Origin: Phaeacidiphilus oryzae TH49
Lineage (GTDB): Bacteria; Actinomycetota; Actinomycetes; Streptomycetales; Streptomycetaceae
Direction of reading: 5' to 3'
Assembly: GCF_000744815.1 (NCBI RefSeq)
Contig: NZ_JQMQ01000005.1
Span: 5,599,801 to 5,663,800, forward strand
Length of the DNA: 64,000 bases
The notes below the pieces were generated by a model. The model had not been told where the DNA came from. It ran no database searches and saw nothing but the letters and a program-made list of their open reading frames with translations. The translations under genes and the position numbers were made by a program. This document shows positions 13,100 to 62,463 of this stretch, one piece after another. Every line of letters starts with the position of its first letter. Position 1 is the stretch's first letter.

Positions 13100-13422
13100 C
13101 TCCGAGGGAGGGTGGCTGGTGCCCGGATCCTTTTTCTGCCCCGGCCCCACCCCTTCCCGTTTCCCGGGGCTGCCGCCCCGGACCCCGCAAAGTCGCGCAG
13201 CGACTTCAGGGGCGCGGGGAACTGCGCGGCCAGGCCGCTACGGTCCGCACTCGGCAGCGGAGTTCGGGTTGCAACCCGGTGGCCGTTGCCAGCTGCGGCG
13301 CCGTAGTGAGCTGGGCGCGCAGTTCCCCGCGCCCCTTGTTCGCCCTCCGGGCTCACCGGGGCGCCGGGGGCGGAGCCCCCGGGAGACGGGCAGGGCCGGG
13401 GCAGAAGAGACCAGGGGGCGTC
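13100..13422. other. murD-ftsW intergenic region filled by a palindromic repeat
   Basis: There is no gene here. The ~320 bases consist almost entirely of nested inverted repeats. The core arms are described separately; a GTCGC/GCGAC hairpin (about 13190-13205) and further GGGGC/GCCCC stems flank them. The ftsW ribosome site AGGGGG lies at the very end, about seven bases before GTG 13423. Compact spacing elsewhere in the cluster suggests that the repeat was inserted. Confidence 0.7.
13208..13336. repeat. Dispersed palindrome family, copy 1 (two-armed)
   Basis: Perfect 21-base arms (13208-13228 and 13316-13336, core AGGGGCGCGGGGAACTGCGCG) enclose an 87-base spacer with the small palindrome GGGTTGCAACCC at 13266-13277. 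The same arm and spacer core recur at about 22882, 27640, 37211 and 62345. Confidence 0.85.
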
Positions 13423-22773: not shown

Positions 22774-22881
22774 GGCGTTCCCGGTACCGCCGCGAGGCAG
22801 CGCCGCAGGCGCGAGTATGAGGCGCGGGGCTGTGACATCAGCGACTCTGCCGCGGGACGTGCCCGGTAGCGCCCCGGGCGC

Positions 22882-23137
22882 GGCGCCGCAGGCGCGAGTA
22901 AGGGGCGCGGGGAACTGCGCGCCCAGGCGGCTACGGCGCTGGACTCGGCAACGGCCACCGGGTTGCAACCCGAACTCCGTACCCGACTGCGGCGCTGCGC
23001 CCGGGGCGGGGCGCCGCAGGCGCGGGTAAGGGGCGCGGGGAACTGCGCGCCCAGGCGGCCGCGGCGCTGCACTCGGCAACGGCCACCGGGTTGCAACCCG
23101 AGCTCCGTACCCGGACTGCGGCGCTGCGCCCGGGGCG
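22882..23137. repeat. Dispersed repeat family, copy 2 (two tandem 128-base units)
   Basis: Units begin at 22882 and 23010 with GGCGCCGCAGGCGCG, followed by the arm core GGGGCGCGGGGAACTGCGC, a CGGCAACGGCCACCGGGTTGC stretch, and GCGGCGCTGCGCCCGGG. The two units differ at only a few bases. They carry the left arm and spacer but no right arm. Confidence 0.85.
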
Positions 23138-27602: not shown

Positions 27603-27639
27603 CCACGCCCGCCCCGGCGCAGCGCCGAAGGCGCAAGTA

Positions 27640-27769
27640 AGGGGCGCGGGGAACTGCGCCGCCGACCAGGCAGGCTGCCGCACCCGGCAACGGAGAGTGG
27701 GTTGCAACCCAGTCGCCGTCGCCGGGTGCGGCGCCGTGGCCGGCCGGGCGCGCAGTTCCCCGCGCCCCT
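27640..27769. repeat. Dispersed palindrome family, copy 3 (two-armed)
   Basis: Perfect 20-base arms (27640-27659, 27750-27769; AGGGGCGCGGGGAACTGCGC) enclose a 90-base spacer with the 14-base palindrome TGGGTTGCAACCCA at 27698-27711. It fills most of the gap between the zinc-finger gene and lspA. Confidence 0.85.
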
Positions 27770-27854
27770 GGGTTTTGCGGCTGCGCCGCGACAACCCCGG
27801 GGCGCAGCCCCGCGGCGCCCGCCGCCCGCGCAGCGCACCGCGCTCGCGCTACCC

Positions 27855-31822: not shown

Positions 31823-32404
31823 ATGGCCCGCATCCTCCTCCTGCACTCCGTCTTCGGCTTCCGGCCCGCCGTACGCGACGCCGCCGAGCGCCTCCGCGCG
31901 GCCGGCCACGAGGTGCACACCCCCGAGTACCTGGACGGCAAGCTCTTCGAGGACGTCGAGGAGGGGCTCGCCTACGTCGAGGATGTCGGCAAGGAGCAGC
32001 TGATGCGGCGGGTCCTCAGGACCGCGCTGCCGCTGATGGAGGACGGCCGGGGCCCGCTCACCTACGCCGGGTTCTCGCTCGGCGGCTCGCTCGCCCAGAA
32101 CCTCGCCCTCAACGACGAGAACGCCTCCGGCCTGCTGCTCTTCCACGGCACCTCGGACATCCAGGAGGACGCCCACACCGAGATGCCGGTCCAGCTGCAC
32201 GTCGCCGAGCCGGACCCGTTCGAGCCGGAGGACTGGCTGAACGCCTGGTACCTCAACATGCTCAAGGCCGGGGCGGACGTGGAGATCCACCGCTACCGGG
32301 GGGCGGGCCACCTCTTCACCGACCCGTCGCTCCCGGACTACGACGAGGCGGCCGCCGAGCGCGCCTGGCTGATCGCCGACGCCTTCCTCGCCGAACTCGA
32401 CTGA
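31823..32404 (+). CDS. Dienelactone hydrolase-like alpha/beta hydrolase
   Basis: This small alpha/beta hydrolase has 193 residues. The nucleophile elbow GFSLGGS, the acid in HVAEPDPFEP and the catalytic His in YRGAGHLFTD are in the order expected for the DLH family. The substrate is unknown. The array of unrecognised paralogues begins directly after its stop, where the first array fragment is cut. Confidence 0.88.
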   Translation: MARILLLHSVFGFRPAVRDAAERLRAAGHEVHTPEYLDGKLFEDVEEGLAYVEDVGKEQLMRRVLRTALPLMEDGRGPLTYAGFSLGGSLAQNLALNDENASGLLLFHGTSDIQEDAHTEMPVQLHVAEPDPFEPEDWLNAWYLNMLKAGADVEIHRYRGAGHLFTDPSLPDYDEAAAERAWLIADAFLAELD

Positions 32405-32429
32405 GCCTCCTGGGCCTTGGGTCTACCTG

Positions 32430-32840
32430 TTGCGGGACCACGACGCCGACCCGGTGCCGGAAGGGCTGGATCCGGATCCCTATGACCCGGCCTGGGTGTT
32501 CCAGGTGTCGCCCGGGCAGTTGCAGGAGTGGTACTCCAGCCGCCGGACGTTCCGCTGGCGCGGAGAGCTGTTCGATCTCGCCGGGGAGTCCGAGGGGACG
32601 GTCACGGGCTACCACGCCGGCAGGCACCTCGACCGGGTCATCGACCACGTGGAACAGGTCGAGCAGCACTCGTTCATGGGCACCTTCCCCCTCAGCCCCA
32701 CCCGAAGGGATCCCCCTACGATGACCTCCGCGATCCCTACCCCCGACCTCTCGCCGCAGACGATCATGCAGTTGCCCGTCACCCGCGAGGCCGCCGAGCG
32801 GTACGTGGCCAACCAGGCCCTGCCCGGGCTCTTCGAGTGA
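32430..32840 (+). pseudogene. Array unit 1: truncated I-type domain fused to the X' leader
   Basis: An uninterrupted frame (136 codons from TTG; homology begins at about 32418) has two parts. The first (to ~32715) resembles the protein at 33215: compare GQLQEWYSSRRTFRW with SQLDAWYSSRWEFRW, and VPEGLDPD with APEGLESD. It lacks about 40 N-terminal and 25 C-terminal residues. The second (32721-32837) is the 39-residue leader MTSAIPTPDLSP..., nearly identical to the start of the gene at 33679, and stops at LFE. I read this as a degraded copy joined in frame by deletion. The family is not recognised. Confidence 0.65.
32721..32837 (+). repeat. 117-base direct repeat, first copy
   Basis: It encodes a 39-residue leader. 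It differs from 33679-33795 at only five positions by my count (about 96% identical). Sequence identity ends abruptly after CTCTTCGAG in both copies. Confidence 0.9.
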
Positions 32841-32841
32841 T

Positions 32842-33222
32842 CTGAGAACGCCGGCGCAGCTGCGCGAGGGGCTGGCACTGGACGACCACGGCGCCGGCTG
32901 GTCCCCCGTTCCGGAAGGCGCGTCCCACGCCTACCAGCTGCGCTTTCGCGCTCCTGACGACCTCGTGGCCCCCACGACGTTCGGCGCGGTGGATGATCCC
33001 GCACTGGCGGACCGTGTCGCGCACATGGCCGGTCAGGACAAGGGCCGCCCGTGGCAGGACCCGTTCACCGGGACCGGATATACCGGGGGAGGTGTCCCCG
33101 AGTGGGATGCCAGGCCCGTCGAGTTCCAGGGCCGGGCGGAGATCTGGAAGATCACGCCGGACGGCCGGGAGGCCATGGCGGGCTACTTTCACGAGGGGAG
33201 ATGGTGGAGGACCGATGGGTGA
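32842..33222 (+). pseudogene. Array unit 2: X'-type domain without a start
   Basis: A frame with good content runs from about 32842 to the stop at 33222 but has no ATG, GTG or TTG before 32965. It resembles the middle of the protein at 33679: HAYQLRF with LFVLRF, DPFTGTGYTGGGVPEW with PPFLGTGYTKYAPAAVPEY, and AEIWKI with TELWHL. It sits one base out of frame with the leader at 32721 and lacks ~17 residues after LFE, so X' was probably one gene inactivated by deletion. The stop overlaps the next gene by eight bases. Confidence 0.6.
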
Positions 33223-33637
33223 CAGCGGGCAGTACAGGCCAGGGCGGTACGCCGTGTACCGAGGGGTGGCCTACCAGGCGCACGGGAGCACCCACGCCGA
33301 GGAGATCGTGCTGAGCGCGGAGGAGGGGCAGCCTGCCCCCGAAGGCCTGGAGTCCGACGTCCAGGATGACGTGCGCTACTACCTCGTCCGGCCCTCGCAG
33401 CTCGACGCGTGGTACTCCTCCCGCTGGGAGTTCCGCTGGCACGGCGGGGAGTTCGCGAGCGTCGGCGCCCGGGACGGCCGCATCACCGGGCAACTCGTGG
33501 GCGGATCGGTACCGGAGGGGCTCACCCGCAGCGGGCCCACCGACTATGACGGCGCCTTCCCACTGGAAGAGGTCACCGACCTCACCGAGCACCGCACCGA
33601 CCTCCTCGCCAAGTGGAAGGCCCAGCACGGCGGGTGA
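33215..33637 (+). CDS. Unrecognised I-type protein of the cassette array
   Basis: The protein has 140 residues from ATG 33215, with GGAGG about four bases upstream. It is soluble, rich in Trp/Arg/Glu and has no signal or membrane segment. Features include RYAVYRGVAYQAHG, RPSQLDAWYSSRWEFRW and a charged end (LTEHRTDLLAKWKAQHGG). Relatives are the fragment at 32430 and the last third of the protein at 33679. It overlaps the preceding X'-type frame by eight bases. A small soluble protein overlapping a variable domain resembles an immunity gene, but this is inference. It is the only intact member of the array. Confidence 0.65.
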   Translation: MGDSGQYRPGRYAVYRGVAYQAHGSTHAEEIVLSAEEGQPAPEGLESDVQDDVRYYLVRPSQLDAWYSSRWEFRWHGGEFASVGARDGRITGQLVGGSVPEGLTRSGPTDYDGAFPLEEVTDLTEHRTDLLAKWKAQHGG

Positions 33638-33678
33638 CGTCGCTTCACCCGTCCCGAACCGAAGGGACGTCCCTGTCC

Positions 33679-33795
33679 ATGACCTCCGCGATCCCCACCC
33701 CCGGCCTCTCGCCGCGGACGATCATGCAGTTGCCGGTCACCCGCGAGGCCGCCGAGCGGTACGTGGCCAACCAGGCCCTGCCCCGGCTCTTCGAG
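33679..33795 (+). repeat. 117-base direct repeat, second copy
   Basis: Partner of 32721-32837, 958 bases downstream. It is the 5' end of the fused array gene. Confidence 0.9.
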
Positions 33796-34655
33796 CCCAC
33801 CCGGATGTGGGGGCTCTGCTCGCGGATGGTGGACGTCGCCCGCGCGGAGTCCGGCGCCGACGCCCGCGCGCGGCACGGACTCGCCGAGGACGAGGCGGGC
33901 TTCCCGCCCGGCGACGGCCTCTTCGTGCTGCGCTTCCTCGCCTCCTGGCCGGGGCTCTTCCAGGCCTCCTTCGGAGGGCAGACCACCGCCGGCGCCGCCC
34001 GCCTCGACTCCACCCTCGTCCTGCCGCCGCCCTTCCTCGGCACCGGCTACACCAAGTACGCCCCCGCCGCCGTCCCCGAGTACTGGCTGGAGCTCACCGA
34101 GATCCCGATCGGCACCGAGCTGTGGCACCTCGCCGAGGCGTCCGGAGAGGAGCACGCCCAGGGCCTCGCCCGCTACGCCGGCCGGCACTCCGGCTGGCAT
34201 GCCTTCCCCGCCGCCGCCGAGCGCGGGCTCGCCCCGCCGCGAGCGGCCCCGCCGCCCCCGCCGGCGCGATCGCCCGCGGACTGCTCGCCACCCTCGGCGG
34301 CGCCCGGTATCCCGCCGACTTCGGCCCCGAAGCCGGCTCCCTCACCGCCTACCGCGAGGCCCCCGACGGCACGATGACCTCCCGTCAACTCGACGAGGGC
34401 GCCGCCGAGGCGGTCGAGTACCGCCGCCTCCTCGCCACCTGGCGCGACACCCGGTTCGAACTGCTCGCCGTCCATGAGGAGACCGCCACCCTGGCCCACA
34501 TCACCGGCAACGCCGAGCAGGCCGCCGAACTCGGCCTCACCCCGGCCGGCCGCCACGCCTGGCGCATCCAGCTCCCCACCGCCGAGCTCGGCGAGATCGT
34601 CGAGGAGACCCGGCGCCTCCCGGCTCCCCAACCGCACTTCGCCGACCAGGGCTGA
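33679..34655 (+). pseudogene. Array unit 3: fused X-I protein, apparently frameshifted
   Basis: ATG 33679 opens the leader MTSAIPTPGLSP..., then the X domain (FVLRF, FLGTGYTKYAPAAVPEYW, TELWHLAE) up to about residue 183. In CGCCCCGCCGCGAG (about 34230-34243) good codon bias moves one frame, and the rest (GAIARGLLATLGGARYPADF to FADQG) continues to 34655. One added base gives a protein of ~325 residues. Its last part (WRDTRFELL... PTAELGEIVEETRRL) resembles the separate I-type protein at 33215. The unshifted frame would stop at 34377. Function is unknown. Confidence 0.6.
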
Positions 34656-37093: not shown

Positions 37094-37191
37094 GACTCCC
37101 CTCTCGGTCGGCCCTCGCGGGAGGATATAGCGCACCACGATGTATCGCCAGACGTAGTACTGAGCGACGTGATGTCGCGGCCCCGGGTGTC

Positions 37192-37359
37192 GCGGCGCAG
37201 CCGCAAACCCAGGGGTGCGGGGAACTGCGCGCCCAACCGACCACATCGCCGCACCCGGCCACGGCGCCTGGGTTGCAACCGGGACTCCGTACCCGGCCGC
37301 GGCACCGTAAGTGGCTGGCCGCGCAGTTCCCCGCGCCCCTGGGTTTGCGGCTGCGCCGC
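37192..37359. repeat. Dispersed palindrome family, copy 4 (40-base arms)
   Basis: Arms 37192-37231 and 37320-37359 match at 39 of 40 positions and enclose 88 bases that include GGGTTGCAACC. The outer parts (GGCGCAGCCGCAAACCCAGG) extend the shared 20-base core. The structure could form a long hairpin or cruciform between divergent promoters. Confidence 0.88.
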
Positions 37360-62313: not shown

Positions 62314-62331
62314 AGCGGCGCCCCGAGCGCA

Positions 62332-62430
62332 GCGCCGCAGGCGCAAGTAAGGGGCGCGGGGAACTGCGCGCCCAGGCGTCTACGGCGCCGCGCTCGGCAA
62401 CGGAGACCGGGTTGCAACTCGGACTCCGAT
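62332..62430. repeat. Dispersed repeat family, copy 5 (left arm and spacer only)
   Basis: The copy begins GCGCCGCAGGCGCAAGTAAGGG, then carries the GGGGCGCGGGGAACTGCGC core and CGGCAACGGAGACCGGGTTG. No right arm is present. It fills the gap between convergent hisF and the response regulator gene. Confidence 0.82.
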
Positions 62431-62463
62431 GCCCTGATTCGCCCTTCGGGCGGCAAGCTCCGG

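What the first reader, a model, noticed from the sequence alone, without database searches (positions are those of the whole stretch)
32405..34655. A decaying tandem array of an unrecognised two-domain cassette
Three related units lie in a row: an I-type fragment fused to a leader, a split pair (X' without start, then intact I overlapping by eight bases) and one gene in which X and I are fused. By-eye matches link the X parts (LRF, GTGYT, VPE, E-I/L-W) and the I parts (WYSSR-x-FRW; R-F/W-E). A variable domain followed by an overlapping small soluble partner, repeated with a shared leader, resembles polymorphic toxin and immunity arrays. No toxin family was recognised.
Basis: partly seen in the sequence, partly recalled or inferred. 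Interest (0 to 1): 0.75.

Follow-up and report, generated by a model that had tools for sequence, protein, structure and literature searches.

The report
Broken toxin locus, immunity gene intact
This stretch of a soil actinomycete genome is the wreck of a locus that once encoded what looks like a secreted antibacterial toxin of an unnamed family; the one gene left intact appears to be the immunity gene that protects against that toxin.

Summary
The array is real and more decayed than described. In six Streptacidiphilus genomes the same modules form an intact series: WXG100-like gene, toxin, I, XI. The window's X' is the rear half of that toxin's C-terminal region; the start, the front of the domain and the WXG partner are missing. 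The I gene at 33215 is intact and keeps the 8-base overlap seen in five of the six relatives. The 'fused' X-I gene is real in relatives, but frameshifted here. The upstream copy is a fragment of a different I allele joined to the first 39 codons of an XI gene. The 'shared leader' is the first strand-helix of the X domain. In other actinobacteria the same C-terminal domain sits behind T7SS-signal, WXG100, SseB and Pro/Glu-rich N-termini; an I-type domain follows or is fused in 17 of 19 loci, the hallmark of polymorphic toxin/immunity systems. No library family matched X or I credibly. Fold comparison hints weakly at the ADP-ribosyltransferase/NAD-glycohydrolase superfamily; membership in the TNT family was tested and not met. 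Best reading: a dead toxin locus whose intact gene may serve as orphan immunity. Most novel part: the third gene, a toxin-like domain fused to an immunity-like domain, of unknown role.

The parts
32421..32695 (+). Fragment of an I-type gene (I1); lacks about 30 codons at the start and about 25 at the end; begins right behind the stop of the hydrolase gene (31823-32404)
   Evidence: tblastn: 57% to the I of L008 over residues 8-98 of the fragment; alignment A2; shuffles
32696..32837 (+). 5' end of an XI gene (XI1): upstream region (32696-32717, 77% to 33653-33674) plus codons 1-39 (32721-32837, 96% to 33679-33795); then a stop codon
   Evidence: the repeat finder D1, D16; ungapped comparison
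32842..33222 (+). X': rear 126 residues of the toxin C-terminal region; no start; front of the domain, N-terminal part and WXG partner missing
   Evidence: 73.6% identity to the S. pinicola L005 toxin over 121 residues, E 1.9e-43; A1, A4, A6; toxin front and WXG partner not found in the window
33215..33637 (+). I2: intact 140-aa immunity-type gene, overlapping X' by 8 bases; GGAGG at 33206-33210
   Evidence: ORF; 50% to the I of L005; sequence
33679..34240 (+). XI2, X-like half (about 185 residues), in frame from ATG 33679
   Evidence: 70-77% identity to six Streptacidiphilus XI proteins
34270..34655 (+). XI2, I-like half, in another frame than the X-like half (frameshift somewhere between about 34235 and 34275, judged from alignment A3)
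   Evidence: 56-62% identity to relatives by tblastn; GC3 0.92 in this frame

Best explanation
The stretch is the remnant of a type VII (WXG100-type) polymorphic toxin/immunity locus of a family without a name in the libraries searched. In intact relatives the order is: WXG100-like partner gene; toxin whose C-terminal domain is X; overlapping gene I; gene XI, an X-like domain fused to an I-like domain. Inferred function: the WXG partner and N-terminal part route the toxin out through the T7SS, X poisons a competitor, and I binds X and blocks it in the producer. My best guess for X is an NAD-consuming or ADP-ribosylating enzyme using the invariant Arg and the conserved Glu/Gln. In the window, deletions joined the end of a hydrolase gene to the middle of one I allele, that I to the start of an XI gene, and XI codon 39 to the middle of a second toxin's domain. 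The second XI carries a frameshift. Only I2 is intact, so its likely present role is orphan immunity against relatives that still carry the toxin. Shown: anatomy, homology, gene order, missing parts. Inferred: the deletion events, toxicity, neutralisation, export, enzymatic activity, present use of I2.
For: Toxin, I and XI homologues in window order in six Streptacidiphilus loci, each with the WXG100-like gene upstream (62-100% to that of L005); PF25547 above cut-off in L004 (5.8e-14) and L005 (1e-12). The same C-terminal domain behind PF21725 T7SS_signal (L059, 3.3e-34), PF25547 in the same chain (L062, 6.3e-9), PF07179 SseB (L060, L061) and Pro/Glu-rich N-termini (L030, L032). An I-type domain directly downstream or fused in 17 of 19 loci. 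8-base toxin/I overlap in the window and in 5 of 6 relatives, 11 in L005. Own genome has T7SS EccB over cut-off and two more PF25547 genes near other toxin-like and SUKH genes. I diverges fastest: window vs six relatives I 39-53%, toxin domain 57-71%, XI X-half 70-77%, XI I-half 54-65% identity. A search of the own genome reported no match to the front of the toxin domain (14 of 52 candidates scored). In G043 the toxin is a 94-aa stub while a double-I ORF is open. Fold hint: of the 50 rows shown by VIA-align, 11 align at least 90 residues and 10 of these are ART/NADase-type entries.
Against: No toxicity or neutralisation data. All fold matches are weak: Foldseek best E 0.11, every VIA-align Z 3.3 or lower, with unrelated short matches as high; model pLDDT 63.5, the GTGYT...PEW loop under 50. 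No promoter- or terminator-like site was found, so expression of I2 is unproven. I2's dN/dS against relatives (0.42-0.66) is not lower than among intact I genes (0.33-0.60), and synonymous sites are near saturation, so present selection is not shown. X' itself shows low dN/dS (0.22-0.39), so its loss must be recent or the measure is blind to it. The XI frameshift could be a sequencing error.
Confidence: 0.85

Rival explanations
1. The X-I cassette is a stored recombination donor, not a dead end: headless toxin/immunity cassettes can be swapped onto a full toxin elsewhere.
For: Headless toxin-immunity cassettes are described as typical of polymorphic systems (PMC3482391, passages); X' keeps its end and the coupled I.
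Against: X' starts inside the domain (residue 107 of the 232-residue L005 stretch, while the predicted first strand is at 63-68), so a swap would give an incomplete domain unless the host gene already carries this family; no such host gene was reported in the own genome (which scored 14 of 52 candidates).
Confidence: 0.07
2. X and I are a housekeeping or metabolic pair unrelated to conflict.
For: No known toxin family matched.
Against: Patchy distribution (9 of 197 class-level genomes; 2 of 199 in the genus of G048), different secretion-type N-termini and fastest divergence in I.
Confidence: 0.03
3. X belongs to the TNT (PF14021) NAD-glycohydrolase family, as the WXG100_2 partner (recalled as typical of CpnT-like toxins) might suggest.
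For: Similar type of delivery part; invariant Arg and a Gly-rich loop before Glu/Gln.
Against: No Pfam TNT match at E<=1; profile-profile probability under 1% against six TNT sequences of the window's order (a shallow TNT profile).
Confidence: 0.05
4. The locus is still functional as a whole: XI2 is made by frameshifting and X' is translated from the internal GTG at 32965.
For: Frames stay open; GC3 0.84-0.98; X' dN/dS against relatives is still low.
Against: The eight relatives' XI are in one frame; the front of the toxin domain and the delivery part are missing.
Confidence: 0.05

Closest known systems
Polymorphic toxin systems, T7SS/WXG class (Zhang et al. 2012, PMC3482391; passages read)
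   Same: Variable N-terminal delivery parts on one C-terminal domain, overlapping downstream immunity-type gene, headless cassettes, strings of immunity genes
   Different: X and I match no Pfam, NCBIfam, PHROGs or PADLOC family credibly; a third gene fuses an X-like with an I-like domain; the window copy has lost its delivery part
esaG/tipC tandem immunity arrays of Firmicutes (Garrett et al. 2022, PMC9484751; abstract and discussion read)
   Same: Non-identical immunity paralogues, recombination through conserved blocks, gain and loss of copies; toxin-gene fragments reported in the tsaI cluster
   Different: There many immunity genes are kept; here pieces of toxin, I and XI are mixed and only one I is intact. 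Recombination was not tested here
Orphan immunity to Rhs NADases in Serratia (PMC10539506; passages read) and Tne5 ART-fold NADase (PMC13285283; passages and one section read)
   Same: Possible ART-like toxin fold, immunity just downstream, orphan immunity as proposed present role
   Different: Those are Rhs toxins of type VI secretion systems; sequence relation to them was not tested directly; the fold of X is only weakly supported

Membership tests
Polymorphic toxin system | Same C-terminal domain combined with different N-terminal trafficking parts | tested here: met
   PF21725, PF25547, PF07179 and Pro/Glu-rich N-termini; met in relatives, lost in the window
Polymorphic toxin system | Immunity-type gene directly downstream | tested here: met
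   17 of 19 loci by I profile; the other two (L059, L062) have an XI-type gene, L062 also a doubtful I
Polymorphic toxin system | Dedicated secretion system in the genome | tested here: met
   TIGR03919 EccB over cut-off in the own genome; PF05108 and PF06013 there. Other T7SS parts were not searched
Polymorphic toxin system | Domain is toxic and I neutralises it | not testable with these tools
   needs the bench
TNT (PF14021) | Pfam profile or profile-profile match | tested here: not met
ADP-ribosyltransferase/NAD-glycohydrolase superfamily | ART-like fold | tested here: inconclusive
   weak matches, none significant
ADP-ribosyltransferase/NAD-glycohydrolase superfamily | Catalytic Arg and Glu in place | tested here: inconclusive
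   Arg in 15 of 15 and Glu/Gln in 15 of 15 toxins aligned; structural equivalence with ART catalytic residues not shown

The most novel reading that the evidence does not exclude
X/I is a new toxin/immunity family with an ART-like, NAD-targeting toxin, and XI is a new kind of third component: a toxin-mimic carrying its own immunity-like domain, with an X half more conserved than the toxin's own domain, that acts as a decoy or spare immunity. In line with a mimic, the Glu/Gln kept in all 15 toxins aligned is Val in 3 of 12 XI proteins (G240, G311, G215).
Probability: 0.3. Interest if true: 0.65.

Novelty: new member of a known kind. Interest (0 to 1): 0.5.

Why it matters
If right, it adds a toxin domain and an immunity domain, both without a library name, to the actinobacterial T7SS arsenal, with intact versions ready to test. 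The window freezes a stage at which a toxin locus has lost its weapon and kept its shield, a route by which orphan immunity may arise. The X-I fusion gene is a concrete open question: why keep a toxin-like domain tied to an inhibitor-like one?

Tried and rejected
Family scans of Pfam, NCBIfam, PHROGs and PADLOC gave nothing credible for X, I or XI. Dropped as chance: HTH_34 and UPF0020 for X' (E 0.16 and 0.23), rubisco_III for the XI end (0.16), two unknown PHROGs for I2 (0.16 and 0.33), FtsZ inhibitor for a double-I (0.1), YjbR and Tad6, each in 1 of 22 I members (0.019 and 0.024). PDB sequence searches with A1, A2, A3 and A8 gave no credible match, best E 0.36. The XI model was too poor to interpret (pLDDT 44, pTM 0.36); no fold is claimed for I. 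The Foldseek and VIA-align lists also hold many glutamate-receptor and other rows with short alignments and equal Z, so the ART reading rests on aligned length only; chain identity within the TreX/TriX entries was not checked, and the kinship of 2o0q to this superfamily is recalled.

TNT membership was tested with relatives' TNT domains and rejected (6 of 30 fetched TNT loci gave a usable sequence). Rfam found nothing at gathering scores. The promoter/terminator scan found nothing. An empty site could not be shown: the hydrolase is next to the antiporter in 10 of 25 relatives' loci (1.5 kb flanks), none of the 25 holds X, I or XI pieces there, and what follows the hydrolase differs among the 8 looked at. 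A recent in-place duplication of the I genes was rejected, though the XI starts are 96% alike; recent exchange of the XI start is possible but untested. L010 was left out of counts: its contig has the length of L007's. The G043 stub (Gly at the Glu/Gln position), the window X' and the L034 fusion (both Glu) were left out of the 15 toxins in the motif count. Paper searches for a prior description showed none in their listings; apart from the four papers named above I saw listings only.

Full report
What is in the sequence. The 2.25 kb behind a hydrolase gene (31823-32404) holds pieces of three gene types. An I-type fragment (32421-32695) runs in frame into a copy of the start of an XI gene (upstream region plus codons 1-39, 32696-32837). 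The 117-nt part is 96% identical to 33679-33795, and similarity stops at codon 39. From 32842 a different frame carries X', the rear part of a toxin domain, with no start codon in register before an internal GTG. I2 (33215-33637) is an intact 140-aa ORF overlapping X' by 8 bases. XI2 starts at 33679, but its two halves lie in different frames (977 nt to 34655).

Intact relatives. Each holds homologues of X', I and XI in the order of the window, an intact toxin gene and a WXG100-like gene upstream (6 of 6). That gene matches PF25547 WXG100_2 above cut-off in the two copies scanned, L004 and L005. The toxin has 333-364 residues in five loci and 493 in L008. X' matches its rear part at 57-71% identity. 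The toxin stop overlaps the I start by 8 bases in five of six and by 11 in L005, the same 8 as in the window.

The X-I fusion is real. Profiles of the toxin and of XI align (probability 96.5%, E 8e-10), as do I and the second half of XI (90.7%, E 1.2e-6), whereas toxin and I do not (0.4%). Pairwise within the window the I to XI link is not significant. The alignment places the so-called leader on the opening strand-helix of the toxin domain, so it is not a signal or shared leader.

Wider family. I was found in 9 of 119 order-level genomes and 6 of 197 class-level genomes, the toxin domain in 9 of 197; these include the own genome. In the genus of G048 (unnamed; I take it to be Streptomyces) it was 2 of 199. 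All are lower bounds, since part of the candidates was scored. Gene neighbourhoods show the X domain behind a PF21725 T7SS signal domain (L059), PF25547 in the same chain (L062), SseB domains (L060, L061) and Pro/Glu-rich N-termini (L030, L032), or nearly alone (L063, L065).

Immunity neighbours. I counted 19 loci where the end of an X domain and what follows are held: the window, L004-L009, L030, L031, L032, L034, L036, L037, L059-L063 and L065. In 17 an I-type domain follows directly or is fused (L034). In L063 and L065 this rests on an extended I profile scored against a seven-sequence set (E 5e-9 and 5e-8). L059 has an XI-type protein instead; L062 has a doubtful I (E 0.001 in that small set) and an XI. 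Double-I proteins follow the toxin in three genomes of that same genus (G043, G048, G094). G043 keeps an open double-I behind a toxin cut to a 94-residue open stub, a second case of lost weapon and kept shield.

Own genome. The window genome has a T7SS EccB gene and two further PF25547 genes. One is followed by an RHS-repeat protein with a sub-threshold YwqJ-deaminase end and a sub-threshold SUKH-3 neighbour; the other lies opposite an XOO_2897-type deaminase with two SUKH-4 genes. So a delivery chassis seems to exist there with other warheads. No match to the front of the X toxin domain was reported in that genome (14 of 52 candidates scored), and none is in the window.

How the wreck formed (inferred). 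I1 groups with the I of S. fuscans (92/88 support, not a starred branch), and a clade of I1 with I2 is rejected (p-AU 0.0047). The two I genes are thus different alleles, not a fresh duplication. At least three junctions are needed: hydrolase end to I1, I1 to XI1 upstream region, and XI1 codon 39 to the toxin domain. The hydrolase is next to the antiporter in 10 of 25 relatives' loci, while what follows varies in the 8 looked at. Garrett et al. 2022 (PMC9484751, abstract and discussion read) describe recombination among tandem T7SS immunity genes and toxin-gene fragments in one such cluster. Zhang et al. 2012 (PMC3482391, passages) interpret strings of immunity genes as remnants of cassette replacement.

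What the toxin might do. The AlphaFold model of the L005 region is middling (pLDDT 63.5, pTM 0.66). Foldseek finds nothing significant; its first and fourth rows are pertussis toxin and heat-labile enterotoxin entries (E 0.11 and 0.30). In the VIA-align table (50 rows shown, 87 of 989 chains at Z 2 or more), 10 of the 11 rows with at least 90 aligned residues are ART- or NADase-type entries: SPN NAD-glycohydrolase, two TreX/TriX, Tne2, two cholera, three pertussis, and 2o0q, whose kinship I recall and did not test. The eleventh has rmsd 16. All Z values are 3.3 or lower, no higher than short unrelated matches. In 15 toxins aligned, the Arg of IARG, the Arg of YxLR and a Gly are invariant, and Glu/Gln in P-E/Q-aromatic is kept in all; the G043 stub, left out, has Gly. 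I take an ART/NADase-like enzyme as most likely, at roughly 0.55, with the fold unproven. TNT membership was tested and not met.

XI. Its X-like half is more conserved than the toxin's own domain (window vs relatives 70-77% against 57-71%). The Glu/Gln is Val in 3 of 12 XI proteins (G240, G311, G215), Glu or Gln in the other nine. This suits a mimic or decoy, but nine of twelve keep it, so an active enzyme with a built-in inhibitor is not excluded.

Verdict. A decayed T7SS-type polymorphic toxin/immunity locus with one intact immunity-type gene: ordinary in kind, apparently new in family. The libraries searched hold no credible match for X, I or XI, and the paper searches showed no description in their listings.

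Noticed in passing
window 13245-13336, 22869-23113, 27608-27775, 37179-37346, 62318-62434: An interspersed, partly self-complementary repeat of about 90-136 nt occurs at six places in the window, on both strands (68-94% alike to the reference copies); looks like a small palindromic intergenic element.
   Followed up: no
L130:992-8001 (G000:C5:2806491-2813500): WXG100_2 gene followed by an RHS-repeat protein with a sub-threshold YwqJ-deaminase end, a sub-threshold SUKH-3 gene, and a second gene with a nearly identical N-terminus that looks RHS-like by eye.
   Followed up: partly
L131:1159-4838 (G000:C5:3319658-3323337): WXG100_2 gene opposite an XOO_2897-type deaminase gene followed by two tandem SUKH-4 immunity genes.
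   Followed up: partly
G000:C4:876292-876561: Partial TNT (PF14021) match, profile positions 25-88 of 88, over cut-off; possibly a truncated toxin.
   Followed up: no
L034:5395-6693: A single 432-aa ORF in G027 joins an incomplete X domain to an I domain and a further unknown part.
   Followed up: partly
L031:806-1949: In G043 the toxin is reduced to a 94-aa open stub in front of an open double-I ORF, with transposition-type genes some 2 kb upstream by eye.
   Followed up: partly
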